This document shows positions 43,956 through 61,106 of a DNA stretch of 64,000 nt, in pieces (the stretch's first letter is position 1; every line of letters begins with the position of its first letter). The notes below the pieces were generated by a model. The model was not told the DNA's origin. It was given only the letters and a program-made list of their open reading frames with translations, and ran no database searches. Source of the stretch: Enterocytospora artemiae. Its lineage: Eukaryota > Microsporidia. Made by a program: the position numbers and the translations under genes. The DNA lies in assembly GCA_038659295.1 (NCBI GenBank), contig JASNGC010000003.1, positions 744,001 through 808,000 of the forward strand, read 5' to 3'.

Positions 43956-43958
43956 ATG
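43928..43958 (+). promoter_or_regulatory. TATA-like box and CCC start motif of LRR gene 1
   Basis: TATATAT is followed by about 18 bases, then CCC joined directly to the ATG at 43956. The paralogue at 48394 has TATATAA with 21 bases to the same GTACCCATGAA string. The parallel spacing supports a core promoter with a near-leaderless start. Confidence 0.45.
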
Positions 43959-46900: not shown

Positions 46901-47504
46901 AGATATGTCCAAGGTCAAAACTGATCATTTTAGAATAGAGTCACTTGAAATTTCAGAGTGTGGATTTAATGATGAAAATGCTCAAGTAATCGGTGAGGTA
47001 TTGAAAAACATGCCTGAACTAAAGGTTCTGAATCTTAATGTTAGCCTTTATGAATTGGAATCAGAAAGTTCTATGCATATCTTGGATGGAGTAGAAAATT
47101 TAAAGAAGTTGAATAGTATAGATTTACAAGGCAATGATTTATATTTGGATGATTTACCGATATTAACCAGAATTATTAAAAATAACAAGCTGATCAATAC
47201 ATTAAATCTATCGGGGAATCAATTAGGAGAAGAGTTAGATGAAATACCCACTAGATCAGAAGTGGTTCAACAATTTGCAACAGCGCTTGAGTTATCACAA
47301 CATTTGGTGTATTTGGATATAAATAAGACAGATTTTAACAGTTCTGATTGGAATGTAATACTCCAAGCGATTTTGAAGGTTTCTAGTCTGAAGAAATTTA
47401 TAGTTTCTTACGATGATTTTGAATCAATGAATGAAGGGACCAAGAAATTGTTGGGGGATCTCGAAATCAAGGGAGTATATGTTGATATTATAAGATATTC
47501 GTAG
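43956..47504 (+). CDS. Secreted leucine-rich-repeat protein 1 (full-length family member)
   Basis: The 1182-residue protein starts with a signal peptide (MKYRCQLLYCMLFLHYVSA). The N-terminal domain of about 580 residues is family-specific (TILNPIFGF, YNPEIEV, LFPSPSGVLCP, CNCLFWDM). A 10-residue degenerate tandem repeat (MADLSEH-like) fills residues about 133-198. From about residue 700 to the end come RNI/LRR-type repeats (HLELEL, SLDISSGEIG, KLNVSHNELG, SLDYSSNELS, TLNLSGNQLG). There is no membrane anchor, so the protein is predicted secreted and may interact with host or spore surface partners. CCC is fused to the ATG. The paralogues are at 48394 and 58900. Confidence 0.88.
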   Translation: MKYRCQLLYCMLFLHYVSAEVSIDQIAELFDTANFSSGDYKDAGKTILNPIFGFICLISCLPNLRRYNPEIEVTRKNGKRNFGKDKSNNPLVSLIIDLFPSPSGVLCPVRTMDSNFGYNYFFKSVNKRHESIKIMADLSEHMKTMADLSEYTRTMTGLSKGIAAIDLSENVQMLADLSKNVQMATDLSEHIKIMSDLFVKVLTEDKDMAVPLPKKILINFMKSSNSELFKDKDKDIKLLLIHGFMIKILNSKEDLELYLSTILKKIKDKAYRIDRYNMGDDFTKTFGEFYKSINSSFPYSRANTPVSNASTPIYTRSSDTFGTRTFSDCVEMALLHLCNCLFWDMKGQCYSLEHLGLDKDSPLIQFYKKVGNNQFTITDDIRKEWSRVVQDLEDFTFTNRSKYSIGKIVYVREGVRNEVKSGMMNMMNILIKIVPSMEINIEEFWEDISQDSIEEKFRELIDKLKHPNCRVECEFKSIEEFVWNNRTDISGNITFTFEDTVNSSEIQMELRIGSGHSEMHFISDIIQKDKLSQFVDKLRFSGYENVAPPFPILLAMRYLMLCERRFNFTIPNDFFTNVYNRILNNNGEKVEVLIYLFEQKDDKEFGKYTSEITKQILDTVELTDTVTQMMFSPFLPGILYTGHYNTFDIFVEACRLKSRVLIEHWKKEVSKFNSIDLTELYGYTDAFNEILEYMPYDVLEVLKISIVRDKEISFTVALLKNTKKLNHLELELYDGLSKEGLSFISESLRNIPTLKHLRLRMPMPSDVKVELFTRVLQSHPNLESLDISSGEIGKFDSSHLSQMFKTMEEMKSLTKLNVSHNELGLEGTKIFAESISKLNIESLDYSSNELSKNEAASAFSKLLLKMPKLKMLSLSQNGLKQSDMQSIFKKNQQVSLSENVASLTGNHGYENIEHLDLGYNKLSYKSVKEIDDMLKQFPKLKGLKVNDNRSNSMNIIEFFNMIHEHKSIVDIDVGGCNFNEFGDMSKVKTDHFRIESLEISECGFNDENAQVIGEVLKNMPELKVLNLNVSLYELESESSMHILDGVENLKKLNSIDLQGNDLYLDDLPILTRIIKNNKLINTLNLSGNQLGEELDEIPTRSEVVQQFATALELSQHLVYLDINKTDFNSSDWNVILQAILKVSSLKKFIVSYDDFESMNEGTKKLLGDLEIKGVYVDIIRYS
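44354..44550 (+). repeat. Intragenic 30-bp degenerate tandem repeat
   Basis: Six to seven imperfect units of about 10 codons encode variants of MADLSEHMK. The equivalent region in the paralogue at 58900 has only a single MADVFVRML-like unit, so the array expanded in this copy. Confidence 0.65.
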
Positions 47505-48393
47505 ATTATTTGGCATTAAAATGAAAATATTGACCATGTGAATATGAATAAATGGAATATACTTCTTAAGTTGTTAGTAGGGTTCAAGAAAAGGGGCATG
47601 GTTTATAAGTATATGCATTATGTGGTTGTATGTTCAATATCCAATACTTCGTCAATATTTTGGAAAGGAATATTAGCAAGAAACTTTTCAGGATTTTATA
47701 AATAGTTATTCGTTAAAAGAAACTTTAGAAACTAAAAAAATTCGAATACAGGGAAATGCATATTTTATTCTCAATTTCAAGGATCAGTTATATCATTTAC
47801 AGACTATGATATTCCTATTGAGATGTCTAATTTATCTAACTCATTGTAGATCATTTTTTAGAAGCCATTAACTTAGGTATAGATTTTCAATAAATCTTAA
47901 TTTAATATTTTTTATGTTGAGATATTATCACTTAATAAAGAAACAATTTTTTGCTGTGGTATTTTTAAAAACATTGAGAAATAGATGATAATACAAACTA
48001 TTATTATTTTTAGAGATAGTTGGGATTTGTAAATGATATATTTTAATATTATTTCACAACAATGGTAGAGTAATGGGATATTATATATTTTTTAACTGAT
48101 AGAGGTGATTAATATTGTCAAGAAATGTTTATACTAATACAACGTTACAAGAATGATTTGAATAAGTTAATAATAAAATATTTGTGAAATTATTCTTATT
48201 TTATTTTCATAATCACTGTTTGATATTAGAATGAATGATCATTTTATCACTTTTACAACAAATTACATTCATTAAACTTTTCTTTTACTCCATTCATATT
48301 ACTTATTAATCTCCCTCACTTCTATTATTTTATTTCTTAATAATCCCTAAAGGGAAAATGAGTATATAAATGCGAAAAATTAATCCCGTACCC
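47505..48393. other. AT-rich intergenic region
   Basis: This 889-bp, very AT-rich stretch separates the LRR paralogues. TATATAA at 48363-48369 precedes the next start. No gene remnant is recognised. Confidence 0.4.
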
Positions 48394-50313
48394 ATGAAGT
48401 ATACTCAGCAGTTAATATATGGCTTGCTGTTTCTGCATCAAGTCACTTCATTTCTTAATAACATGCCGATGGACACTGCTTGTAAACCATTCGAGACAAT
48501 TGAACTACTCCTGTCGAATATTAGCAGTGATAAAGACAAAATAGAATTACTGACATACTTGTTTGAACATAAGATTGAGAAAAAAGATGACAAGGAATTT
48601 GTGGAATACGCAAATAAAACTACAAAACTAATATTATATAACGTTGAACTAACAGATCCAGACACACAGATGATGTTCTCACCATTTTTACCCGATAGCA
48701 CAGTGTATATAGGATATAATATATTTGATGTGTTTATGGAAGCATGTCAATTAGAGTCCAATGCTTTGAAAGAGTACTGGGGGAATGAGATATCCAAACT
48801 TAATTCAATTGACCTAACAATGCCATATGGTTATAGTGGTATAGTTTATGAAGTATTAAAGTATATATCTTATGAGTCATTGGAAGTATTGAAGATTTCA
48901 ATTACTAGGGATAAGGAGGTATCACTTGTAGTTAATTTACTTGAGAAAGCTGGTAAATTGAATCATTTGGAATTATCTGTAGACAAAAATGTAAATGAAA
49001 CAAATTTAAATTGCATTGCAGAGTCGCTGAAGAATATTTCACCAAAACATCTTAAACTAGACATTCATCCATCATCTGATAATGAGACAAACCTATTTAT
49101 TCGAATGTTGGAGAATTGTCGGAATCTTGAGTCACTTGATATTAGTAATAATGGTATTGGAAGGTGCGATCCATCCTATCTTCCACAATTGTTCAAAGCC
49201 ATAGAAGAAATGAAGTCACTGAAAAAATTAGATATTGGTTTGAATAGGTTAGGGTTAAAGGGAACTAAAATATTTGCAGAATCAATAACAAAACTAAATA
49301 TTGAAAGCTTAGACTATAGCTTAAACGGGCTTGATAGAGGTGAAGCGGCATCAGTTTTTTCAGGATTATTATCAAGGATGCCAGAGCTAAAAATGCTCTA
49401 CTTGGATGGCGATGGACTGACCTCAAATCATATGTTATCTATCATGAATGGTAACAAACCAGGACATACGTACGGAAAAGACTACATTATACTGCCCAGG
49501 GACAAAATAGAATTTTTAAGTTTGTGTGAAAATAATTTATGCAGTATCATGGAAAGAGTTGAGGAAATGTTAGCATGGTTTCCCAATTTAAAAAGTTTAC
49601 GTTTGGGAAGAAATTATACTGGAGAGATGAGTGTTACAAAATTCTTTAATTTAATACATAAACATGGAAAGATAACTGATATAGAGGTTCAACAGTGGCG
49701 TTTTGATGGCCAATCATGTGATGAAGAACTTATTGATGACAGTTTTAGAATAGAATCACTTGATATTTCATTCAGAAGCTTGAATTATAAACTTGTCCAA
49801 GAAATCGGGAAAGTATTGAAACATATGCCTGAGTTGAAAGTTCTAACTCTTACATGGTGTAATCTAGGCTCAACAGATCTTTTCCATATTTTAGATGGAA
49901 TAACAAGTTCAAAGAAATTGACATCCATAAATCTAAGAGGAAATGATTTATGTTTAAATGATTTGGGTATGATAACAAAAATCATCGAGAATAACAAGTT
50001 TATTGAAACCTTGAATTTGTCAAATAATCAATTGGGTGAAGAGCTGGAAGAAGGAGTGGTTGTGAGATCAGAGGCGGTTCAACAGTTTGCAACTGCACTT
50101 GAATCTTTAGAGGATTTGACAGATTTAGATATGATTGATGTAAGATTTAACAGTTCTGATTGGAATACAATACTTAAATCGATTGCAAAACTTCCTAATT
50201 TGAAGGAATTTAGAATTTTGTGTGATGATTTCGAATCAATAGATAAAGATACCAGAGAATTGTTAAATCTTCTCAAATACAAAGGAGTGTGCGTCTCTTT
50301 TGTAATGTGGTAG
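48394..50313 (+). CDS. Secreted leucine-rich-repeat protein 2 (lacks the N-terminal domain)
   Basis: The 639-residue protein has the same leader (MKYTQQLIYGLLFLHQVTS) as LRR gene 1. The next alignable region corresponds to residue 589 of LRR gene 1 (YLFEHKIEKKDDKEF against YLFEQKDDKEF). About 560 residues are therefore missing between leader and LRR half. The LRR part runs from about residue 160 to the end (SLDISNNGIG, KLDIGLNRLG, TLNLSNNQLGEE). The frame is intact and CCC is fused to the ATG. An internal deletion or leader-to-domain fusion would explain it. It is predicted secreted. Confidence 0.87.
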   Translation: MKYTQQLIYGLLFLHQVTSFLNNMPMDTACKPFETIELLLSNISSDKDKIELLTYLFEHKIEKKDDKEFVEYANKTTKLILYNVELTDPDTQMMFSPFLPDSTVYIGYNIFDVFMEACQLESNALKEYWGNEISKLNSIDLTMPYGYSGIVYEVLKYISYESLEVLKISITRDKEVSLVVNLLEKAGKLNHLELSVDKNVNETNLNCIAESLKNISPKHLKLDIHPSSDNETNLFIRMLENCRNLESLDISNNGIGRCDPSYLPQLFKAIEEMKSLKKLDIGLNRLGLKGTKIFAESITKLNIESLDYSLNGLDRGEAASVFSGLLSRMPELKMLYLDGDGLTSNHMLSIMNGNKPGHTYGKDYIILPRDKIEFLSLCENNLCSIMERVEEMLAWFPNLKSLRLGRNYTGEMSVTKFFNLIHKHGKITDIEVQQWRFDGQSCDEELIDDSFRIESLDISFRSLNYKLVQEIGKVLKHMPELKVLTLTWCNLGSTDLFHILDGITSSKKLTSINLRGNDLCLNDLGMITKIIENNKFIETLNLSNNQLGEELEEGVVVRSEAVQQFATALESLEDLTDLDMIDVRFNSSDWNTILKSIAKLPNLKEFRILCDDFESIDKDTRELLNLLKYKGVCVSFVMW

Positions 50314-50579
50314 TAAAATAAATTATTTAATATTAAATGAGAGATTGTAATTTATAAGATGTACTTTAAAAACCTGTCTTTGTTATTTTAAAATATATAA
50401 ATTCAAGGAATGAGAAGTTAGGTATTATCCACGGATGCTAAGACTAGTTAAGTTGTAAGAACTACTTTTATTCACTTTTGATTTTTATAAGACTAATAAA
50501 CGATATAAACTCAAATAATAGATATGCATTCAATATGATCCCACAACACTAGCTCAAATATCATCCATTACTTCATCCA

Positions 50580-50987
50580 CTACAATTTTCTTTCTCTTGA
50601 AGATGAAAGAGAATCAGTACTTGGTATTAGAAAGTATTTCAGGGTATTGTAATTCATCAAAGCTGAACATGTAGGATTCAACATCTCCTTAGTTTCTTGT
50701 GGGATGCCTTTCCACTTCTCTCCAACAAATAATTGTATGCATTCATTATTTATTTAGACCATAAACATCCCAACATCAACAAGTTCCTCACACAATATGC
50801 CAGATTCCTCAAGAAGCTCTTTCTTTACACATTCAAGAATCGTCTCACCGGGCTCCTTCTTTCCCCCGTATGCATTCCAGAGTCTAGCTCCGATCTTCCT
50901 ACTTTTCCTTGCCAGTAGAAACTCATCTCCATATCTCAATATAATCAGTGAGTCATTCTCATGAGTTCGAATAATTTTTTCAACATG
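50580..50987 (-). pseudogene. MTH1-like Nudix hydrolase pseudogene
   Basis: On the minus strand one reading frame, broken by a single in-frame TAA (50754-50756), matches the MTH1/NUDT1 family of 8-oxo-dGTP diphosphatases. FLLARKSRKIGARLWNAYGG leads into a Nudix box with EPGETILECVKKELLEESG, where Lys replaces the usual Arg. After the stop, QLFVGEKWKGIPQETKEM fits the following VHVF....GTP.E..EM segment. No initiator ATG is present upstream of the homologous region. The frame ends at TAG 50580-50582, short of the usual C-terminus. It lies 33 bp outside the left arm of the large inverted repeat. Confidence 0.72.
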
Positions 50988-51142
50988 TTATGCTCTATGT
51001 CACTTAGTTATCTTAAGATATTAGAAACGACTTACAGTAGACAGTTAGATTCTGGTTGGCCATCAGAACACAAGGTCATCTCTGGATAAATTTCTATTTT
51101 GATAAGAGTCTTATTCTGAAAATGATTGGTTTACATGCATTA

Positions 51143-51325
51143 CCCAGTCCATTCTCCCTGTGTCACCTGTGGTTGTGGATTGTTGAAAATCAGCTGCTTC
51201 ATAGAATTCGTCAGTGGTGAATCCTCATTTAGCTTTAGGTGTTCTAGAGCCTTTCTCCCATATTCCAGAACAGGCAGTTCACAGATGGAAAGTCCCCTCC
51301 AGCACAGCCCGAGAATGTCTGCTTT
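51143..51325 (-). pseudogene. Relic of LRR-family N-terminal domain (left arm copy)
   Basis: This is the mirror copy of the relic at 56383-56565. Read on the minus strand it resembles LRR gene 1 near 44930-45120 (TFSDC, NCLFWDM, EHLGL), with frameshifts. Confidence 0.55.
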
Positions 51326-51604
51326 GTATTCAAGCCATCACCACCTCTTGTGCATGGTGGGTCTGTGTCTGTTCTGCCAGTCAGTTTGCGATTTTGCCGT
51401 ATGTTGCTAATTGGAAAATCAATTTGCAGTACGAAATATCTGTTTTGCTAGGGTCTTTTAATTGATTAATTAAAAATGCCATTAACAATAATTCAAAGTG
51501 TCTCGTCAAAGATAGTTTGCTGATTCATTGGTGTTTCCAACACCTCAATTTTCCTGTGAGAATCAGCACTAAAATTTGTAGCTTAAATATTTTAGAAAAA
51601 CCGG

Positions 51605-51611
51605 CCCCATG
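51605..51611 (+). promoter_or_regulatory. CCCC start motif fused to the leader ATG (left arm)
   Basis: CCCC is joined directly to ATG 51609. A second ATG follows at 51615 and aligns with the only ATG of the related leader gene at 57883. An identical site serves gene B on the other arm (56097-56103). Confidence 0.6.
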
Positions 51612-53888
51612 AATATGTTGGCAGGGTATCTGATTGCTGCATGTATCTTGTGTCTCGCCGAGAGTAGTACTGGGGGGATTGTGGATGTGCTGCACCCTTC
51701 TGACTACACATTGGCTGTGTGCCCAGATAAACCTGCATCACAGGCTGGAGCAATATACGATGATCCATCACTCATCAACCCAATTCTAGAATCTATTGAT
51801 TATGAAGGTACCTTCAATGAAAATAGAGAAGTTCTATCTGATTATAACTACATTAATTTAACAAGTGACCTGAAAAAACTCAACATTGTGGGGGTACTTT
51901 TTGGAGGAAGTATGTTATACAAACACAAATTGGGAAAATTAGAAAACTCCAAAGACTGGGATGGAATAATACTTGTTAAACAAAAAAATGATATCGTAGC
52001 TCTTGTCAATCAACATCGACAAGAGTTATGTAATCTCCTTGGCATAAAATATGAAGAATATCCAGAATTGAGAGTACCTTTACCTACATCAAATTTATTC
52101 GAAGCTTTTCATGGTGTTCGTTTCGCTGGCCGGACACGTGAAAATATTAAAAAAGGAACAAAGATATTAGCTGTGGACTATTTAACTAAAATCCTTCAAG
52201 AAGATCAACCCTCTTTTATTAATCTTCTGTCATTCAAGGAAGTAAGAGTTGCAGAATATCAAATTAACGACATTATTAACCAGGTTCGAATCCAACAAGC
52301 AACTCGGCTAGACAATAACTTGGTGATTTTGCATGATATGGATATATTCCTGACTGACTCCTGTAAAAACCATGGTATCTCTGCTGCAATTTTTGGGGCT
52401 ACCACTGATTTACTGATGACAGGGTCCTGGGTTTATGACGATGGGTCTTTAACTGGCGAATGTATAACTAAGAGTTTATTCTCAAAATACCAAAGGCTCC
52501 ACACAGCATCACTAAGTCAAGAGAAGTTTATGCTAGTTTTAAAAAATATTAACAAATTTCCAGACTTTTTTCGTAAAGACCTAGAAAATAGATTTAAAAG
52601 ATATTATTCTGATCTAAAAATCAAACAGGATTGTGAATGTAGGAAAGATTTGATTCGTCACCAATGTTGTTTCTGGGGTAAACAGCCAGAAGTTAGTCTG
52701 GTAAGGAAGAAACAAGGACTAAAAACACAGACACTTCAAAGTGTGGATAGCACTATTTTAAATTTGTTCCAACACTACAATACAGATTTTTCATCAAACT
52801 CGCAAAGTGGATCTTGTAAAATCAATCTTAAAATATTTTGGAAAATAACCAGATTTATATCTGAGGAATTAGAAGGTTGCAGATTAGTTTCACAATACTA
52901 TCCTTTTATACAAGTTCCTCTAATGGTTGATCAGAAAAAAGGTATAGTTTTCTATCCATTTTTTGATGGAACATTGTTATCTGACTTAAGATTGGAATGT
53001 GTAAAACAAGAATTCGAAGGTCATCAATCATTGGACCCTGTCATTTTAACTGTGGAACTTCAGAGATGTGAAGATTTACTTCAAGCATTTTGTACTTCTG
53101 CAAAAATGGAAAAAGAAGAATCTACACCGGGAATTCATCGATTTTTCTATGATCGTTTAATGAATAATGGACGCTTTGACGAGTTTTATCGAAATGGTAT
53201 TAGTTATCTAGGCGAAAAATTAACACTCCAAGATTTGAAATCTAAGGACTTGTTGATAAATGGAAGAAACTACGGAAATTTAACACAAATTATGAATAAG
53301 GCATCTCAAATGTTGCACCCTTCCAATTTTCAAAACCAAATGGTGATTTGTGGTATGGGGGATGGCCATTCAGCGAATGTTATGGTAGGGAAAGAGAAAC
53401 AGAAAAATGAGACTTATAGGTATCTACATATTGATTATGAAGTGGCTGGATTTCATTCTCCTATCCTAGATTTAGCCAAACCCTTTTATAATGACATCTT
53501 TTTTAATTTATTTTATTCTGATTTGGTGACATCCAACGAAGAACTTTTTGACAGACATATGATAAGGGTGGATTTGACATCCAAGGATAATACAATTGAA
53601 ATAGAACTTTCACTACCAAAAAGTTTGATTAGTTCTTCAATATTTGAAATAAAGAAACGATATCTTCTACTTCCATTCCTAGATTTTGTTAAAAATTGTG
53701 AGGAATTCCAACTGAGCGATAATTGGGTTAATACCTTTGGGCAAGCATTATTTTGTTGTTCCCTTCTTACCAGGAATTTTTCTAAGAGATCGGATGTATT
53801 TTTTGGTAATTTAGCCTTAGGCGTAATTTTAACCTCGATAAGAAGTATTAATGATCTTGATGATATCGTAAAAGTATTACTTCAATAA
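51609..53888 (+). CDS. Chimeric secreted protein A: shared leader + nucleotidyltransferase-like + APH-like kinase domain
   Basis: The 759-residue protein begins with signal peptide MNMLAGYLIAACILCLAESS and a 57-residue acidic spacer, identical to protein B through residue 77. After the junction, LFGGSMLYKHKL (GGS at 99-101) followed by KDWDGIIL (Asp116, Asp118) fits the GS...DxD core of a nucleotidyltransferase fold. In the C-terminal half GMGDGHSANVM resembles the GD.H..N Brenner motif of APH/choline-kinase-like enzymes, and HIDYEVAGFHSPILDLAKPF resembles their ID.E.A..G.P..DLA motif. Substrates are unknown. No membrane anchor is obvious. It converges on gene B with 210 bp between stops. The enzyme part looks like an intracellular enzyme placed behind a native secretion leader, probably by horizontal gain; donor unknown. 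Confidence 0.8.
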   Translation: MNMLAGYLIAACILCLAESSTGGIVDVLHPSDYTLAVCPDKPASQAGAIYDDPSLINPILESIDYEGTFNENREVLSDYNYINLTSDLKKLNIVGVLFGGSMLYKHKLGKLENSKDWDGIILVKQKNDIVALVNQHRQELCNLLGIKYEEYPELRVPLPTSNLFEAFHGVRFAGRTRENIKKGTKILAVDYLTKILQEDQPSFINLLSFKEVRVAEYQINDIINQVRIQQATRLDNNLVILHDMDIFLTDSCKNHGISAAIFGATTDLLMTGSWVYDDGSLTGECITKSLFSKYQRLHTASLSQEKFMLVLKNINKFPDFFRKDLENRFKRYYSDLKIKQDCECRKDLIRHQCCFWGKQPEVSLVRKKQGLKTQTLQSVDSTILNLFQHYNTDFSSNSQSGSCKINLKIFWKITRFISEELEGCRLVSQYYPFIQVPLMVDQKKGIVFYPFFDGTLLSDLRLECVKQEFEGHQSLDPVILTVELQRCEDLLQAFCTSAKMEKEESTPGIHRFFYDRLMNNGRFDEFYRNGISYLGEKLTLQDLKSKDLLINGRNYGNLTQIMNKASQMLHPSNFQNQMVICGMGDGHSANVMVGKEKQKNETYRYLHIDYEVAGFHSPILDLAKPFYNDIFFNLFYSDLVTSNEELFDRHMIRVDLTSKDNTIEIELSLPKSLISSSIFEIKKRYLLLPFLDFVKNCEEFQLSDNWVNTFGQALFCCSLLTRNFSKRSDVFFGNLALGVILTSIRSINDLDDIVKVLLQ

Positions 53889-54098
53889 AATATTATAAAA
53901 CACATATTATTTAACTTTAATAAGAGGATAATAATGAAAATAAGAATGAATAATTATATTATTCATAACCTTGCATTAGTTAATATTTATATTATCAATT
54001 AAAACTCTTGTAACTATACCATTTATTAATACGTATGATAAGGCTTATCAATAGAAAAAATTGACACGCCCTAATAGTCGTATTATATATAATAACAG
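53889..54098. other. Spacer between convergent chimeric genes
   Basis: This 210-bp AT-rich stretch contains the 3' ends of both chimeric genes. No additional gene is seen. Confidence 0.4.
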
Positions 54099-56099
54099 TT
54101 AATTATCTTTGTAGGTATCCTCAAATAACTTGAAAACTTCCTGCACAAGCAACCTATCTTCCTCAAAACTCAAAAGATCACAAGCTTCATCAAGTGAAAC
54201 TAACCTAGCTTCAAAATTCTCATTTGGCATTTGGGTATTATCTCTTCTTGGTTTATACTCATCCACTTGAGTCACATACCAAAAGACAATCTTATGATTA
54301 GGTACTGAATCCCCAACTTTATGCAGATAAATCATAAAAGGTTCTGTACTGGCATTCAGTTTCCTCGAGACATCAGGATGATGTGCATTACCTGATGGAG
54401 TAGCTCTAGTTTCCATGTTGAGAGGCATCAGTGAACAATAAAAACCCGTCTCTTCATAGGTTTCACGTAATGCACACTCATGTAAGGTCTCATCAATATC
54501 CTTACGTCCCTTAGGTAACAACCATTCCTGTTTACCATCTAGTTGATGTATGAGACAAATTCTTCTTTGTGATTTATGGATTAGTACAGAACCAACACTC
54601 AAAACAAATTGGTGGGAAAACAAGCTAATCTTTCCAGAATATCTGTTACGGAGAAGTTCTTGTAGAGATATGGCTTCATATTTTTGAATTAACTTGTCAT
54701 AAATAAGGTTTGAACATTCATCCACCGTGTTTTTCTCATTATAAACAACAAAACAATCAGTTTCTGTCTTGATTCTATCTGCTCCTCGGGATATTTTAGT
54801 TATGTCTTTAACAACTAACTCATCTATATCTGTACAAGAACGTCTCTTTCGTGTTTCTAAGGATGCATCCACATAAACTATCTGGAGAAGCTTACCCAGG
54901 AATTTTTGTAATTGTTGTGTACTTTCTAATCTGTGACAGCTTTCGATGGTTATAACTCTAAGCCAATAATGACATTGTAGGTACCTATCAAGCTGTTTAA
55001 TCAGAAATTCAGCTTGTTTATTCGGAGTTAGTTGGTAAACATCCGGATATTGCTCCAGAAAGTAACCAATTTTTAAGCGAGAAGATTTAATACCTCTTGT
55101 ATCCAGTTTTCTGCAAATATCTTCAGCCAAACAACTCTTCCCAGCTTCAGAAAGGCCTCCAAATGCTATAATAGCAGTTACATGTTCAAACATTGGCTTT
55201 AAAAGTTTTGAGTTCGTATACTGATTAACTATTGATCGAATTTCATTTTGAACTTGGATAACAGACATGCTTGTAACATTAATGGTGTTAGTATAAACCT
55301 TGTCAGACTCCTGGCTGGCTAGTTGCTGTTGAAACAACTCCTGGTATTTTTTATACGAATCATCATACTTATCTTCCCGATTCAGAGTAATTTCCACGCT
55401 TTCCTTTAGGTTTTTGCCATGTTTCAATAATATTCGGATATCTTCTCTGGGAATTGAAATGCCCAATTGTTTTTTGATATTCTCGTATGTTTGTTCAGCT
55501 TTTTTTAGGTCACATTGATCTTTAAATGCAATTCTAGCAATACAAACGGCCTCAAACATTACTGCTCCCCTATCAAATACCACAAAATGCTTTGACGGGA
55601 TTGTAGACCAGCGGTTTTTAACAGCACGCATTATACTTGAAACAAATTCTTCATTACTGGCAGTTTCGAACCACCAATGCCTCAGATTGTTTTCCTTATC
55701 CAATGCTTTCATTTGGCCATCATAATCATAAATCCCAGAACAAATTTGAAAAGAATCTGGTAAGAACAGTGTTTGTAAGGTTTTACCAACATTGTCTGGT
55801 CCATTTATAGAGATGGTTATATTAGGGGAATTGAGATTCATATCTTGAGGGTCTGGAAATAAAAATTCAGATAGAACTTCTCTATTTTCATTGAAGGTAC
55901 CTTCATAATCAATAGATTCTAGAATTGGGTTGATGAGTGATGGATCATCGTATATTGCTCCAGCCTGTGATGCAGGTTTATCTGGGCACACAGCCAATGT
56001 GTAGTCAGAAGGGTGCAGCACATCCACAATCCCCCCAGTACTACTCTCGGCGAGACACAAGATACATGCAGCAATCAGATACCCTGCCAACATATTCAT
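54099..56099 (-). CDS. Chimeric secreted protein B: shared leader + two P-loop kinase-like domains + Nudix hydrolase
   Basis: The 666-residue protein shares its first 77 residues and upstream DNA with protein A. After the junction a first P-loop GPDNVGKT (100-107) resembles thymidylate-kinase-type NMP kinases, with a DRG motif in FVVFDRGAVMFE. A second P-loop GGLSEAGKSCLAE lies near residue 307 in another small-kinase-like domain. The C-terminal 170 residues contain a full Nudix box: GRKDIDETLHECALRETYEETGF fits Gx5Ex7REUxEExGU. The second in-frame Met (87), just after the junction, could be the original start. Nudix enzymes cleave nucleoside diphosphate derivatives. Predicted secretion of such a kinase-Nudix fusion suggests action on host or vacuolar nucleotides, which is inference. 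Confidence 0.82.
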   Translation of the reverse strand: MNMLAGYLIAACILCLAESSTGGIVDVLHPSDYTLAVCPDKPASQAGAIYDDPSLINPILESIDYEGTFNENREVLSEFLFPDPQDMNLNSPNITISINGPDNVGKTLQTLFLPDSFQICSGIYDYDGQMKALDKENNLRHWWFETASNEEFVSSIMRAVKNRWSTIPSKHFVVFDRGAVMFEAVCIARIAFKDQCDLKKAEQTYENIKKQLGISIPREDIRILLKHGKNLKESVEITLNREDKYDDSYKKYQELFQQQLASQESDKVYTNTINVTSMSVIQVQNEIRSIVNQYTNSKLLKPMFEHVTAIIAFGGLSEAGKSCLAEDICRKLDTRGIKSSRLKIGYFLEQYPDVYQLTPNKQAEFLIKQLDRYLQCHYWLRVITIESCHRLESTQQLQKFLGKLLQIVYVDASLETRKRRSCTDIDELVVKDITKISRGADRIKTETDCFVVYNEKNTVDECSNLIYDKLIQKYEAISLQELLRNRYSGKISLFSHQFVLSVGSVLIHKSQRRICLIHQLDGKQEWLLPKGRKDIDETLHECALRETYEETGFYCSLMPLNMETRATPSGNAHHPDVSRKLNASTEPFMIYLHKVGDSVPNHKIVFWYVTQVDEYKPRRDNTQMPNENFEARLVSLDEACDLLSFEEDRLLVQEVFKLFEDTYKDN

Positions 56100-56688
56100 G
56101 GGGCCGGTTTTTCTAAAATATTTAAGCTACAAATTTTAGTGCTGATTCTCACAGGAAAATTGAGGTGTTGGAAACACCAATGAATCAGCAAACTATCTTT
56201 GACGAGACACTTTGAATTATTGTTAATGGCATTTTTAATTAATCAATTAAAAGACCCTAGCAAAACAGATATTTCGTACTGCAAATTGATTTTCCAATTA
56301 GCAACATACGGCAAAATCGCAAACTGACTGGCAGAACAGACACAGACCCACCATGCACAAGAGGTGGTGATGGCTTGAATACAAAGCAGACATTCTCGGG
56401 CTGTGCTGGAGGGGACTTTCCATCTGTGAACTGCCTGTTCTGGAATATGGGAGAAAGGCTCTAGAACACCTAAAGCTAAATGAGGATTCACCACTGACGA
56501 ATTCTATGAAGCAGCTGATTTTCAACAATCCACAACCACAGGTGACACAGGGAGAATGGACTGGGTAATGCATGTAAACCAATCATTTTCAGAATAAGAC
56601 TCTTATCAAAATAGAAATTTATCCAGAGATGACCTTGTGTTCTGATGGCCAACCAGAATCTAACTGTCTACTGTAAGTCGTTTCTAAT
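55867..56688 (-). repeat. Inverted repeat, right arm (822 bp)
   Basis: Reverse-complement partner of 51020-51841, with the same relic, promoter, CCCC motif and 77-codon leader, here serving gene B. The spacer between the arms is 4025 bp. Outside the arms (51019 and 56689) sequence similarity ends. Confidence 0.95.
56383..56565 (+). pseudogene. Relic of LRR-family N-terminal domain (right arm copy)
   Basis: Plus-strand DNA resembles LRR gene 1 near 44930-45120. CATTCTCGGgCTGTG, CTGTTCTGGaATATG, TAGAACACCT and GATTCaCCACTGA are shared, but frameshifts and stops break the frame. The homologous stretch encodes the CNCLFWDM...EHLGL region of the N-terminal domain. It shows the repeat arms descend partly from a broken LRR gene. 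Confidence 0.6.
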
Positions 56689-56830
56689 TTGCCAATATCC
56701 AGTGACTAAGGACGGATGTGTAGAGTTTGATTGATTGAGATCATCATGTCATCTTGTAACTTGATACCTGTGAATGTTCTCAATGTGTCGACAGCTTTAT
56801 TATTAGTATCTACATATACTGTAGTACTCT

Positions 56831-57025
56831 TTATGAAGAAGGACAATTGACATTGGATGCACTATCAACATCATCCATTGGTGATTCGAACAAAATATCA
56901 AATATTTCACTTTTTACAAACTCTACAGGTTGGAACAAAATATCCAGTTCTTCTTCTGTATCCGTCAATCTTATGTTGCCTCTGACATCCAAGTCTAGTA
57001 TGTTACTGTTGTATTTATGAATAGC
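56831..57025 (-). pseudogene. Open coding-like remnant without start
   Basis: The minus-strand frame is open for 64 codons between TAA codons (57026-57028 and 56831-56833), with no ATG at its head. The peptide is acidic (for example NILDLDVRGNIRLTDTEEE) with two related EFVKSEIFDILFE-like stretches. It is probably the 3' end of a decayed gene; the family is unknown. Confidence 0.3.
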
Positions 57026-57445
57026 TTATTGTATGCTTCCAGGTAAAATGCTCATTAAGTTGTAGTTTGCATTACTTGGATCAATAGTATTTTTATCTCT
57101 TATGAAAAGAAGTTTAAATATTCATGAGGTAATTAATTTTGTATGACTACCAATATTCATTATAACAATTTGATATTAGAATATGTATTAATCATATGTA
57201 ATGATAATTTATTAATAAAATTCAAGAAATAGAAGTTGGTATTAAATAGCATAGGAAGTTATAATGGTGTATTTAATCATATATTGATAAGTATTTATGG
57301 AATTAATCGAGATATGCTGATGATTAACATTATAACCAAAGAGTGATACTATGGTGAGAGGAATGTCATCAAGTTGTATCAATGGGAAAGATAAGTTCTT
57401 TGTAACTGAGTTGTAAGGATCAAACTCAAATCCCATTGGGATTTT

Positions 57446-57883
57446 TTAGCTTGATGATAATGATAAATCAAGAATATAACAAATCACCAGGACTACTAGT
57501 ATAATTGAGATAAAGTAACGTAAGATAGTATATAGGAGACCCTTGCTGGGGTTTTGAAGGAAATAGATAATTGAAAATACAACTGAATAAGCAATGATCA
57601 TGAAAACTATATAATGACATAATGAATATTCACCCCTTAAACAGTTGGGTAGCACTTTCCTAAGTGAAGTATGGTTATAGTTGGAGTGTTCTTTCCCGTA
57701 TTCAATTAGATCATCCCCTGTGGAATATTCAGAATAAGTAAATTTTTCAGTTGACGGGGAAATATCATCTCTTGGACTAGTTTGTGTAGTGTATCTGTTT
57801 GAAATAGCATCTGATAGAAATTCCCTATCATTGTCCTCAGCAAAACAAAAATTACATATAACAATCAGATATTTTGGTAGCAT
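57446..57883 (-). CDS. Small secreted/membrane protein carrying a diverged version of the shared leader
   Basis: The 145-residue protein begins MLPKYLIVICNFCFAEDN, which aligns with MLAGYLIAACILCLAESS of the chimeric genes. The DNA aligns too (TATCTGATTG and the CCC seven bases upstream match the same positions). A polar region of about 65 residues follows, then two hydrophobic segments (YIVFMIIAYSVVFSIIYFL and YFISIILVVLVICYIL). It is predicted to enter the ER and stay in a membrane. It gives independent evidence that the leader is native to this genome. Function is unknown. Confidence 0.6.
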   Translation of the reverse strand: MLPKYLIVICNFCFAEDNDREFLSDAISNRYTTQTSPRDDISPSTEKFTYSEYSTGDDLIEYGKEHSNYNHTSLRKVLPNCLRGEYSLCHYIVFMIIAYSVVFSIIYFLQNPSKGLLYTILRYFISIILVVLVICYILDLSLSSS

Positions 57884-58899
57884 GTTCTTAGGGCAGACTT
57901 TCTCTTCAAAAAATTAAAATCACAGATTGTCCATTTAAATGTTCATAATATGAGGTATAGAGACATCCTCCAAGGTATATAAATCTTGAGGTTGAATTTA
58001 TGAGAGATACTCACCATCACCGGTTATATGTTGATAAGTGTGGATTTCATATTGATGAGACAGATACAAATATACTATTATGGCCTGTTGTCTACATGGA
58101 CTATCAGTACTCGTAACCTTTAATATAAAAGATTATAGAGGACCATCGCAATGTATTGTGATGATTTTTTGTAGTGGAGAACAAGACTACAGTACCATGT
58201 TCTGAAGGGGTCGAGTACTTTACTAAGATGTAACTGTAGCTGAACCGAGCCATAGCACAGTAAATGTACTTATCAATACATAATAACAGAGTATAACTAC
58301 CATTACAATATACTGTAAATGATTCAGGCTGATTGAGTGGAATAGGTAATTTATACAGAGTGGCAGTGACAAAGGATATATTTGAATGAATAGTTGCTAT
58401 AACCAAAGCAGTATTTCCTACTATCTTAATACCTGTAAGGATTAACAGAATCAAAAGATAAACACGATTTGGGGATGAACAATTTATTAATATGTTAAAT
58501 ATGTGTAATTGTTGGCCCAGTACCACTCATTTGTTCGTAGTATCACTCTCAGTTGTTGGTGTGAACATTTAGAATGCTTTAACCAATTCAAGGATATTGA
58601 GACCAATTCTGAAAATGGAATTACATGTTCTTCAAGGATATAAGATGGTATTAATGGTTGATTAAGTAGTTAAGCCACAATATGGAGCCGAAATATTTCA
58701 AATTTTGCAATTAAATGATCACTATATCCAGGAGTGATATTATTGGTAGAGTTAGGGAGAAAGGGGTACTATTCATAAACAATATACATATTGATGTAGT
58801 TGTTATTATGTTTAATACTTTATCAATATCTTGGAAAGATATATTAGTGATGTTAAGGGGGAAGAGGAGTAATAAATAGAGACATTAGCACCGGTATCC
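57884..58899. other. Gene-poor island stretch
   Basis: About 1 kb of AT-rich DNA lies upstream of the third LRR copy. A hydrophobic minus-strand frame (58104-58526) opens only with GTG right after a stop, and I do not accept it as a gene. Confidence 0.35.
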
Positions 58900-61030
58900 A
58901 TGAGATACCGCTATCAGCCATTCTACAGTTTGTTGTTTCTGGATCAAGTGCTTTCGGAAATATCAATGGACCAGATAGCCAAGGTAATTGGCATGGAAAA
59001 ATATGAAAGTATGAGAAAAACAATTCTCAATCCAATGTTTGGATATTTATGGTTGAGAAACTGTGGACCCAACTTACGAAGGTATAATCCAGAAATTAAA
59101 GTTACGTATGAAAGTGGCAGAAGAGACTTTGGAGAAGATAAAAGCGATGATCCTTTTGTTAGTCTTATGATAGATCTATTCCCATCCCCAGCAGGCATAT
59201 TGTGTCCTTTTAGAAATATGATGAATAATTTTGGGTATCACTATTTCTCCAAGATCACTGAGGAAAAAGCCAAAAAAGATAGATGTAACAAAGGCATAGA
59301 AGTGATGGCAGATGTATTTGTCAGAATGCTGACAGGAAGTGAAACAAATGTAGCCAGGTTGTCTGAGTCTAAACAAGACAAAATCAAATATACCGTTAAT
59401 CGAATAATATACAATACCGGGATGGAATCCAAATCAGAATTGTTCAAGGGGAAGGAGAAAGAACTTAAGCTTCTTTTGATCCATGGGTTTATGGTCAAAG
59501 TACTAGATTCCGAGGAAGAGTTGGGATTGTATCTCGATAAAATATTAGAGAAAATTGAGGATAAATCATACGAAATAGACGAATATGGTATGAGTGATCA
59601 TTTCACAGAAACATTCAGTGAATTTTATAGGATTATTAACATATTTCCATATTCCAGAGTGAATACACCAGTTCCAATATACATAAGAAAAGATAATACA
59701 TTTGATGAAACCAAAAAATTCACGGATTGTGCAGAAATAACACTACTTCATCTTTTCAACTGCTTATTCTGGGATATGGAAGGACAGCACTATTCATTAG
59801 AACACCTGGGATTGGAAGAAAGTTTACCGTTGAAGAAATTCTGTAGAAATGTTGGAATAGAGAATTCACAATGACGGCAGACAGAAGAAAGGAATGGTCT
59901 AGGGTAGTACGAGGTTTAGGAGGGTATACGCCTAGGGATGAAGGGGAATATTTGATAGATGAGTGTGTATAAGAAGGTGATGAGTGTGTATAAGAAGGTG
60001 ATGAGTGTGTATAAGAAGGTGATGAGTGTGTATAAGAAGGTGATGAGTGTATATAAGAAGGTGATGAGTGTGTATAAGAAGGGTTGGTAAAGAATGAGGT
60101 GAGATGAGGAATGATAAGTATGATGAATGTGATTGTAATGGCTACGGAAGTATCTCCAGCAGATACAAGCTTAGAGGGGTTTTGGAGGAATATTAAATAA
60201 GTTTAGGGAATTGATTGATAGGCTAAAACATCGTAATTGTGAAGTTAAATGTGGAATCAAATCAATTAGAGGATTTACAAAGGACGACAGAAGAGATTGG
60301 GGATACACCACTTACCTTTGGAAATACAATTAACCCGGGAGAGCTGGGAGAGGTCAAGATGGAGCTAAAAATTAGTAGTGGAAATTCTGCAATGCACTCT
60401 GTCTCGGATACTAAACTTACATTCAGTGGATATGAGAATGCAGCACCACCACATCCTATTGCATTGACCATGAAGTATCTGATGCTCTGTGATGAGAGAT
60501 TTAACCTTACCATACCCGACGGTTTCTTCACAAATGTGTACAATAGAATGATCAACAACAACGAAGAGAAAATAGAAGTACTGGGATACTTGTTTGAACA
60601 TAGTGATGGTAAAAAAAAGTAGAATACTCAAATGAAATTACAAAGCAATACTAGGCACAGCAGAGTTAAGAGATGGAAGGACACAGAAGATGTTCTCACA
60701 ATTTGTACCAAAGAATGCATTATATATATGGTATAGTATATTTGATGTGTTTGTAGAGTGTAAACTAAAAGTAGTGGTTTGGAAGAGTATTGGGGAGAAG
60801 AGGTGTCCAAAGAGGTATCTAAAGAGGTATATAGATTGGAATTAGTTGATTTAGCAGGGTTTAGTAATAATGACATGGCTGGTGAAATATTAAAATATGT
60901 ACCATATGGACATTAAAGGTGAGGATTTGAATTGCTAGGAATAAGGAGGTATCACCTGTAGTTGATTTACTTGGTAAGGCAGACTTGAATAGTTTGGAAT
61001 TTGAAGTGGCACAGTGGGGTTACAGAGAAC
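58900..61030 (+). pseudogene. Decayed third LRR-family gene
   Basis: The first 324 codons are open and match the N-terminal domain of LRR gene 1 (leader MRYRYQPFYSLLFLDQVLS, then TILNPMFGY, YNPEIKV, LFPSPAGILCP, LFNCLFWDM). A one-base deletion near 59860 causes a frameshift to TGA. Downstream homology continues in other frames with further stops, a 21-bp minisatellite, an open stretch at 60239-60622 (SGYENAAPPHPIAL, FFTNVYNRM) and traces to about 61030. It is truncated before most LRRs. The start motif is TCC instead of CCC. A truncated secreted product of 324 residues cannot be excluded. Confidence 0.82.
59958..60083 (+). repeat. 21-bp minisatellite, six units
   Basis: Six head-to-tail units, nearly identical (one base change in unit 5 and a changed end in unit 6), lie inside the decayed LRR gene. 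In the ancestral frame each unit carries a TAA. In the next frame each unit reads MSVYKKV without a stop. The paralogue has a single unit at this site (near 45163-45185). Confidence 0.9.
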
Positions 61031-61106
61031 GTTGAAGGATAGAAATTTAACGGATAATATGAAGATGATTTAACGGATAGTATGAAGATTTCTGGTTTTC
61101 TCACGC

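What the first reader, a model, noticed from the sequence alone, without database searches (positions are those of the whole stretch)
51020..56688. Inverted repeat gives two unrelated enzymes the same promoter, start motif and secretion leader
Seen directly: 822-bp arms flank a 4025-bp spacer. The arms share upstream DNA, CCCC-ATG, signal peptide and the first 77 codons. Identity ends at the same base inside both coding regions. Beyond it, gene A encodes nucleotidyltransferase-like plus APH-like domains and gene B encodes two P-loop kinase-like domains plus Nudix. Both frames stay open across the junction. Inferred: a convergent enzyme pair was captured behind a duplicated native leader, making a matched secreted enzyme system that could act on host nucleotides or small metabolites.
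Basis: partly seen in the sequence, partly recalled or inferred. Interest (0 to 1): 0.92.

Follow-up and report, generated by a model that had tools for sequence, protein, structure and literature searches.

The report
Two foreign enzymes given one leader
Near a chromosome end of a microsporidian parasite, two enzyme genes of foreign type have each been joined, by an inverted repeat, to the start of one native gene for a secreted-type protein, so two enzymes whose parts resemble neighbouring bacterial genes may enter the parasite's secretion route together.

Summary
It is not an isolated assembly quirk: the 5.7-kb element recurs on a second contig, and B with its arm on a third. The leader is native: promoter, signal peptide and one degenerate cysteine repeat belong to a mostly subtelomeric family. 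A and B are chimeras: none of 77 retrieved homologues carries the leader, the closest homologues start about where the cores begin, and an old B relic resembles B only up to the arm boundary. B's nearest named homologues are in bdelloid rotifers. Best reading: laterally acquired enzymes, probably nucleotide-related, retargeted to the secretory route by duplicating one native promoter-leader. Secretion, substrate and co-transfer are inferred; the nucleotidyltransferase call rests on motifs alone. New variant of a known kind (microsporidian enzymes that gained signal peptides).

The parts
51020..51841 (+). left arm of the inverted repeat: upstream DNA of A, leader, first 2 nt of codon 78
   Evidence: 822 nt, 100% complementary to 55867-56688
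55867..56688 (-). right arm: the same for B; also present next to B at C2-left and C1
51144..51355 (.). stretch of the arm resembling DNA inside long native subtelomeric ORFs, partly LRR-like (70% identity)
   Evidence: C4:352347-352566, C2:686214-686412
51545..51636 (+). promoter-proximal DNA and start region shared with native secreted-type family genes (78% over 96 nt, E 4e-13)
51609..51839 (+). leader of A, 77 codons: signal-peptide-like residues 3-17 plus one degenerate native cysteine repeat
55869..56099 (-). leader of B, same 77 codons
51609..53888 (+). gene A, 759 aa: leader + nucleotidyltransferase-like (GGS...DWD) + APH/EcKL-like kinase
51861..52598 (+). approximate nucleotidyltransferase-like domain of A (residues 85-330; motif evidence only)
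   Evidence: no support
52761..53885 (+). APH/EcKL-like kinase domain of A (residues 385-759)
   Evidence: EcKL; pairwise profile match to the bacterial neighbourhood's APH-like kinase, E 2e-13 and 2e-14
54099..56099 (-). gene B, 666 aa: leader + tandem P-loop kinases + Nudix
54690..55832 (-). tandem P-loop kinase domains of B (P-loops at residues 100 and 315)
   Evidence: (pairwise profile match to bacterial kinase-kinase, E 3e-77)
54174..54602 (-). Nudix domain of B (residues 500-642, box at 531)
54074..54098 (.). 3' flank of B: common end of similarity with C1, C2-right and C3-left copies, beyond which those loci run into a native family gene facing B
57446..57883 (-). short native-type gene (145 aa) just upstream of B with a related start region and signal-peptide type
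50500..61089 (.). part of the shared 48322-61089 block in which C3-right and C2-left differ at only 5 aligned positions

Best explanation
A microsporidian of the Glugoides/Vittaforma neighbourhood acquired enzyme genes of a kind it does not share with any named microsporidian returned by my searches; for B the nearest named relatives are in bdelloid rotifers (tree), for A no donor can be named. B reached several chromosome ends, at first without this leader (inferred from a decayed relic). Subtelomeric recombination then replaced the 5' end of B by the promoter, signal peptide and one cysteine repeat of a native subtelomeric gene, and an inverted copy of that same 822-nt piece came to sit in frame in front of A (shown as anatomy; order inferred). 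The result is two convergent genes with one promoter and one leader, copied to a second chromosome end, with B alone on a third (shown). Both proteins should be expressed together and enter the secretory route without the membrane anchor of the donor family (inferred). Together they carry activity types that bacteria encode side by side: APH-like kinase, tandem P-loop kinase, Nudix hydrolase and, by motif, a nucleotidyltransferase. The likeliest role is phosphorylating, activating and clearing a nucleoside- or nucleobase-derived compound outside the parasite's cytosol, with the parasite's ADP/ATP-translocase-type carriers taking up products; this last step is conjecture.
For: Exact arms and shared leader. 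Second copy at C2-left, and B alone at C1. Native origin of promoter and signal peptide, and of the post-signal part (16.5 bits; best of 1,881 scored shuffles 8.3). Donor family at 10 distinct places, 8 of them within about 40 kb of a contig end (my grouping of its 17 matches, C5 length by subtraction). None of 77 retrieved homologues has the leader. The closest homologues start at the junction: P0001 for A, P0018 for B. A has no Met between the junction and its GGS motif, so it needs the leader's start. The C2-right relic matches B to the arm boundary 55867 and no further. Active-site motifs intact. A groups with P0001 (100/100); B groups with P0018 (100/99) beside a rotifer-bearing clade. 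Bacterial neighbourhood: within 5 kb and on the same strand of 73 kinase-kinase genes, Nudix in 44 and APH-like in 31; per ORF and any strand, 50 and 31 of 487 near against 1 and 0 of 241 more than 6 kb away. L118 and L119 have these gene types together. Profile matches. Five TLC matches, about four genes, in the own genome.
Against: No expression, proteomic or localisation data. The signal peptide was judged by hydrophobicity only. The post-signal homology appeared only in a second, narrower test. The nucleotidyltransferase domain of A finds no support in profile comparison (E about 0.2) or Pfam. Nudix and kinase domains are promiscuous, so substrate is open. In the bacterial loci Nudix and APH-like genes occur together within 5 kb in only 16 of 73, and neither in 14 of 73 (motif rules, probably low); many of these loci are related Streptomyces and not independent. 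The same loci hold a short-chain dehydrogenase (22 of 73), which the microsporidian pair lacks. C1 has B without A, so the two are not strictly bound. No A homologue bears a rotifer name, so a shared donor is not shown: the hint is one equal contig length (6,054) for P0002 and P0020, and a third protein, P0062, shows that length too. The C2-right relic could have lost a leader instead of never having had one.
Confidence: 0.64

Rival explanations
1. Promoter capture only. The arms gave A and B a working subtelomeric promoter and start codon, and the signal peptide is a by-product that is cleaved or ignored, with the enzymes acting in the parasite cytosol.
For: B keeps an internal Met (residue 87) about where its closest homologue P0018 starts. 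Most homologues lack a signal-like N-terminus: 10 of 11 full-length B homologues; of 17 A homologues two are flagged, both for the strand before the GGS motif and not for a leader. Cytosolic enzymes need promoters too.
Against: A has no Met between the junction and its GGS motif, so its only sensible start is the leader's. The leader keeps a hydrophobic core of 2.44 over 15 residues, and four of the five long native relatives end in strongly hydrophobic segments. All five leader copies found in the genome are identical at 77 residues.
Confidence: 0.16
2. Passing subtelomeric recombination. The chimeras are short-lived products of end shuffling with little or no function, on the way to the decay already seen in the B relics.
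For: B relics: stops and an internal deletion at C2-right, a truncated piece at C3-left; recent homogenisation of the block; many related genes at the ends.
Against: Three B and two A copies are open throughout, with P-loops, Nudix box, GD-H-N and DYE motifs in place in the window's copies, in a 3-Mb genome. The leader is in frame in both genes.
Confidence: 0.12
3. Assembly artefact: the arm in front of A, or the inverted repeat as a whole, is a misjoin.
For: Perfect inverted repeats near chromosome ends are a classic trouble spot; no reads were available to me.
Against: The element is assembled twice, on contigs whose left flank differs at 186 aligned positions before 50,500 and which part altogether beyond 48322; the C1 copy differs again. 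C2-left carries its own substitution inside one arm (position 56164).
Confidence: 0.04
4. The leader is an old, native part of both enzyme families and not an addition.
For: Both proteins carry it in every intact copy in this genome.
Against: None of the 77 retrieved homologues carries it, and the leader matches an unrelated native family in promoter, signal peptide and repeat.
Confidence: 0.02

Closest known systems
Secreted hexokinases of microsporidia (Nematocida parisii, Trachipleistophora hominis)
   Same: A metabolic enzyme that is otherwise cytosolic carries a signal peptide and is thought to reach the host side, possibly to feed host nucleotide synthesis (PMC5113988, passages; PMC6460350, title and start of abstract).
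   Different: Here two acquired-type genes got the same leader by an inverted repeat, the leader can be traced to a native gene family, and the pair holds several activities of one bacterial neighbourhood.
Laterally acquired nucleoside and nucleotide genes in microsporidia (thymidine kinase, NTT transporters)
   Same: Foreign genes in nucleotide supply, taken up by organisms that cannot make nucleotides (PMC5113988, passages).
   Different: The passages I saw describe single genes and no fusion to a native leader. B's kinases and A's kinase reach no NCBIfam cut-off.
Uncharacterised, mostly actinobacterial neighbourhood: kinase-kinase-nucleotidyltransferase protein, APH-like kinase, short-chain dehydrogenase, Nudix
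   Same: Tandem kinase homologous to B (E 3e-77); APH-like kinase homologous to A's (E 2e-13); Nudix close by (44 of 73).
   Different: Domains are joined differently (B: kinase-kinase-Nudix; A: nucleotidyltransferase-like plus APH-like), no dehydrogenase or phosphoribosyltransferase in the pair, and no leader.
Similar gene set in two bacterial MAGs (loci L118, L119)
   Same: Nudix, APH-like kinase, nucleotidyltransferase and kinase-kinase within about 5 kb. L118: Nudix, APH and deaminase by Pfam, nucleotidyltransferase at the cut-off. A-family queries hit the L118 APH gene by tblastn (best 1.6e-12 with P0014; window A core 3.4e-5).
   Different: Separate or differently fused genes, plus an adenosine deaminase in L118. 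In L119 the APH-like, Nudix and Ham1-like genes are named from my reading of the sequence; L119's APH-like gene has no Pfam match.
Bdelloid rotifer homologues of B (Didymodactylos carnosus, Adineta steineri)
   Same: Kinase-kinase-Nudix architecture, 50-52% identity.
   Different: No leader; they sit in a clade beside, not at, the window's branch.

Membership tests
Signal-peptide-bearing secreted microsporidian enzyme | N-terminal signal peptide on an enzyme whose relatives lack it | tested here: met
   Hydrophobic core in residues 3-17; the leader is absent from all 77 homologues retrieved. Hydrophobicity only, no dedicated predictor.
Signal-peptide-bearing secreted microsporidian enzyme | protein found outside the parasite cytosol | not testable with these tools
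   needs localisation or proteomics
Native subtelomeric cysteine-repeat secreted-type family (donor of the leader) | same promoter and start region and signal peptide | tested here: met
   78% over 96 nt, E 4e-13; sequences side by side
Native subtelomeric cysteine-repeat secreted-type family (donor of the leader) | cysteine repeats after the signal peptide | tested here: met
   one degenerate repeat, 16.5 bits, 0 of 1,881 scored shuffles as high. A profile of whole N-termini did not show it: 14.8 bits against a shuffle mean of 14.6 and maximum of 24.7.
Native subtelomeric cysteine-repeat secreted-type family (donor of the leader) | C-terminal hydrophobic (membrane) segment, in four of five long members | tested here: not met
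   best core 19-mer 1.37 in A and 1.45 in B, so A and B are chimeras, not members
Nudix hydrolases | box GX5EX7REUXEEXGU (consensus recalled) | tested here: met
   residue 531 of B; Pfam 8.6e-13
P-loop kinases | Walker A GX4GK(S/T) | tested here: met
   residues 100 and 315 of B
APH/choline/EcKL-type kinases | catalytic Asp and Asn plus metal-binding Asp in order (consensus recalled) | tested here: met
   GDGHSAN at 584 and DYE at 609; EcKL 1.0e-4. The His of the usual HGD motif is Met or Leu in this family.
Nucleotidyltransferase (NTP_transf_2 type) | G[GS]S...DxD motif and a matching fold or profile | tested here: inconclusive
   motif present at residue 99; no profile support; structure prediction switched off
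Bacterial kinase/APH/Nudix neighbourhood | homologous kinase-kinase and APH-like kinase, with Nudix | tested here: met
   in the bacteria themselves APH-like and Nudix are both found near the kinase in 16 of 73 loci only
Known anti-phage defence systems (PADLOC) | match to a model | tested here: not met
   none for A or B; hits to candidate models PDC-S07 (6.6e-11) and PDC-M05A (5.7e-4) for two bacterial neighbourhood proteins

The most novel reading that the evidence does not exclude
A multi-enzyme pathway of bacterial type was turned into a two-protein exported system: an inverted repeat copied a single native promoter-signal peptide onto both acquired genes, so that all its activities would leave the parasite together and rework a host nucleoside-type compound. 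That would be a way of converting a foreign metabolic unit into an effector pair.
Probability: 0.3. Interest if true: 0.85.

Novelty: new variant of a known kind. Interest (0 to 1): 0.62.

Why it matters
How acquired cytosolic enzymes become exported is seldom caught in the act. Here the donor family of the leader, an apparently leaderless relic, the fused genes and spread copies all sit in one genome, so the order of events can be tested. The pair also draws attention to a gene neighbourhood (kinase-kinase, APH-like kinase, Nudix, nucleotidyltransferase) in actinobacteria and two other bacterial MAGs, with relatives of its tandem kinase in fungi and rotifers, whose substrate is unknown to me. 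If exported, it would give a concrete, assayable case for how microsporidia might alter host nucleotide pools.

Tried and rejected
Viral origin: searches of viral contigs with the A and B alignments confirmed no relative (35 and 12 pattern matches, none confirmed). Defence system: PADLOC gave nothing for A or B. Solved structures: no useful match for A (best E 0.097, choline kinase); for B the matches shown are to the Nudix part (best 1.3e-9, Dcp2); for the bacterial kinase-kinase-nucleotidyltransferase profile the best are AdkA-like kinases (8.8e-6), with a weak CdnD match to its last domain (0.012). Nucleotidyltransferase homology between A and the bacterial proteins: not significant. First test of the post-signal leader against whole native N-termini failed (leader 14.8 bits, shuffles up to 24.7); I then built a profile of repeat units only, and that succeeded. 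This is a second attempt after a failed first and should be weighed as such. The 10 units were picked by a script rule, and the one unit I had already noticed as similar to the leader (second repeat of the C4 gene) is not among them.

Bacterial neighbourhood counts: the first gene calls were spoilt by wrong-frame ORFs in GC-rich DNA. The second set had a cluster that merged APH-like kinases with short-chain dehydrogenases (seen), so the APH counts, and those in my notebook entry, are too high and are not used. The recount uses motif rules and is probably low, because the ORF filter drops some genes. Of 115 relatives found the tool kept 80; I counted on 78 of these (L118 and L119 read by hand), and 5 of the 78 had no kinase-kinase ORF in the filtered set and were dropped. 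A Nudix density control on six genomes gave 202 matches in 53.3 Mb, about 1.4 expected within 2.5 kb either side of 73 genes, against 43 seen by motif on the same strand.

For alignments I used 16 of 17 A homologues (P0017 left out, a fusion with another enzyme) and 36 of 60 B homologues in the larger alignment. In the B tree 39 rows were used.

Print searches. No title or abstract start listed there describes a microsporidian pair like this or names the bacterial neighbourhood, which asked for five of six terms, returned no paper at all. Read as passages only: PMC12449221, PMC12558613, PMC5113988. All others were seen as search listings and abstract starts.
Full report
What is there. The inverted repeat is exact: 51020-51841 and 55867-56688, 822 nt, no mismatch, 4,025 nt apart. 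Genes A (51609-53888, +) and B (54099-56099, -) point at each other and share residues 1-77. Identity stops in codon 78, and both frames run on without a stop. The window is C3:744001-808000 of a 3,015,070-base genome in 5 contigs; the element lies 14 kb from the right end of C3.

Which organism. The microsporidian SSU rRNA model matches over its full length at five places, all near contig ends (about 1,179 bits); the model also rings in 9 of 14 prokaryote controls, so length and score, not the bare hit, carry the point. The aspartyl-tRNA synthetase of the window has its nearest named relatives in Glugoides intestinalis (62%), Vittaforma corneae (61%) and Enteropsectra breve (59%). C1 begins with (AACT)n, that is a TTAG repeat; a 4-mer TTAG telomere with rRNA genes behind it is reported for G. 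intestinalis (PMC12449221, passages). I therefore read it as an unnamed microsporidian near that group. No named microsporidian appears among the homologues of A or B, though most hits are unnamed.

Not a single misjoin. The full 5,669-nt element is also at C2:17007-22675, and B with its arm at C1:18515-21129. C3-right and C2-left share 48322-61089; of 191 aligned differences, 186 lie before 50,500 and 5 after. C1 shares 54074-61089 with 8 differences, 6 of them within 54080-54097 just behind B's stop codon. This looks like recent copying between chromosome ends, with a switch point at the 3' end of B. The 100% identity of the arms is therefore no sign of selection by itself: the whole block is young or homogenised.

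Where the leader comes from. Window 51545-51636, which covers promoter-proximal DNA and the first codons, matches C2:679233-679328 at 78% over 96 nt (E 4e-13) and C3:30592-30713 at 71%. Side by side, native genes at C1, C2-right (two), C3-left and C4 share a GCCCCA-AT(G/A) start context and an MLAEYLIV-C-FC-A type signal peptide. Those proteins have a signal peptide, cysteine repeats and, in four of the five long ones, a strongly hydrophobic C-terminal part. A search with one of them gives 17 matches, which I group into 10 places: 8 within about 40 kb of a contig end (C5 length by subtraction) and 2 internal, at C2:538004 and C2:583058. Residues 21-77 of the leader align with one cysteine-repeat unit: 16.5 bits, while the best of 1,881 scored shuffles (2,000 made) reaches 8.3. 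A first test with a profile of whole N-termini had not shown this. Another part of the arm, 51144-51355, resembles DNA inside long native subtelomeric ORFs (70%). So the arm is native subtelomeric DNA ending inside a cysteine-repeat gene; its GC is 40-44% against 33-36% in the cores.

The cores are additions to it. Homologues of A (17 hits; only the 7,999 candidates sharing most words were scored) and of B (60 hits) lack the leader: a BLASTP of the leader against all 77 finds one internal 15-residue match at E 0.23. P0001 (54% to A) starts with Met where A has residue 76-77, and P0018 (68% to B) starts a few residues before the first P-loop. In A there is no Met between the junction and the GGS motif at residue 99, so A depends on the leader's start; in B an internal Met 87 remains. 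At C2-right a decayed B has no leader: its similarity to B ends at the arm boundary 55867, and I see nothing like the leader in the DNA further upstream. The simplest reading is that this relic is older than the fusion; loss of a leader at the same base is possible but less likely. One B homologue, P0028 (39%), has its own signal-like N-terminus (12-mer hydrophobicity 2.94) unlike the leader, the only one of 11 full-length B homologues that does.

How the pair was built. At C1, C2-right and C3-left, B or its relic faces a native cysteine-repeat gene in convergent orientation; in the window and at C2-left it faces A. Either A was put in place of the native gene, or the native gene replaced A at those ends. 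I cannot decide. In the trees B pairs with P0018 (100/99) and the two, with P0025, lie beside a clade that holds both rotifer proteins; A pairs with P0001 (100/100), beside unnamed sequences, none with a rotifer name. P0002 (A type) and P0020 (B type) share source and contig length 6,054, and P0020 nests with Adineta (98/94), which hints at an A-B pair in a bdelloid; but P0062 shows the same length, so this remains a hint and co-transfer is inferred.

Probably not an arbitrary pair. A scan of bacterial and archaeal genomes with the kinase-kinase-nucleotidyltransferase relatives of B kept 80 loci of 115 relatives. Within 5 kb and on the same strand of 73 such genes, a Nudix gene is found in 44, an APH-like kinase in 31, a short-chain dehydrogenase in 22 and a phosphoribosyltransferase in 11. 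Per ORF and on either strand the counts are 50, 31, 22 and 11 of 487 within 5 kb, against 1, 0, 0 and 0 of 241 more than 6 kb away. Against a fixed set: Nudix and APH-like are both present in only 16 of 73 and both absent in 14, and many loci are related Streptomyces. L118 and L119, two MAGs, hold Nudix, APH-like, nucleotidyltransferase and kinase-kinase genes together, with an adenosine deaminase in L118; in L119 the Nudix and APH-like calls are my reading of the sequence. The kinases of B match the bacterial ones in a pairwise profile comparison at E 3e-77, and the kinase of A matches the neighbourhood's APH-like kinase over 312 columns, 15% identity, at E 2e-13. The nucleotidyltransferase of A does not match by profile, so the fourth correspondence is by motif only. 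Thus A plus B cover the same activity types with different joins.

How it most likely works. Shown: shared upstream DNA, shared in-frame leader, intact active-site motifs, several open copies. Inferred: common expression, entry into the secretory route, soluble export because neither core has a clear membrane segment. Conjecture: action on a nucleoside- or nucleobase-derived compound, drawn from the kinase, Nudix, phosphoribosyltransferase and deaminase company. The genome has five matches, about four genes, to ADP/ATP-translocase-type carriers, and microsporidia lack nucleotide synthesis and import host nucleotides (PMC5113988, passages). The dehydrogenase in the actinobacterial sets speaks for a more specialised product and against simple salvage.

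Known and new. Microsporidian enzymes that gained signal peptides are known, with hexokinase as the model (PMC5113988 passages; PMC6460350, abstract start), as are laterally acquired nucleotide genes. I found no paper describing two acquired genes given one native leader by an inverted repeat, nor a name for the bacterial neighbourhood (open-licence library only, listings and passages). I call it a new variant of a known kind.

Change on checking. On holding the draft against the calls I corrected the rotifer statement (it holds for B, not A), added the 16-of-73 and 14-of-73 results, corrected the distances of the donor family from contig ends and several domain calls in L118 and L119. Confidence in the best explanation was lowered from 0.66 to 0.64 for the first two, and the promoter-only rival raised from 0.15 to 0.16.

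Noticed in passing
C1:1 onward (L014): Contig starts with a 4-nt TTAG-type telomere repeat, as reported for Glugoides intestinalis; rRNA genes lie near contig ends.
   Followed up: partly
window 43956-47504, 48370-50313, 58900-59874 and C1/C2/C3/C4 ends: Subtelomeric genes, two in the window with LRR matches and one (58900) sharing its N-terminus with long ORFs at other ends; all heavily reshuffled between chromosome ends.
   Followed up: no
window 61107-63269: 720-aa ORF with a weak MreB-type match (8.1e-7) just beyond the shared subtelomeric block.
   Followed up: no
L118:4793-9886 and L119:7350-11164: Two bacterial MAGs with a compact set of Nudix, APH-like kinase, nucleotidyltransferase and kinase-kinase genes; L118 adds an adenosine deaminase.
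   Followed up: partly
protein P0028 (691 aa): A distant B homologue (39%) that begins with its own signal-like segment and holds an extra insertion; possibly a separate case of export.
   Followed up: no
proteins P0076, P0077: Variant with a DUF4254 domain in place of the first kinase; in P0076 followed by the second kinase and a nucleotidyltransferase-like domain.
   Followed up: no
window 61045-61089 and C1:13953-14089: Short tandem repeat (period about 23 nt) at the outer edge of the shared subtelomeric block.
   Followed up: no
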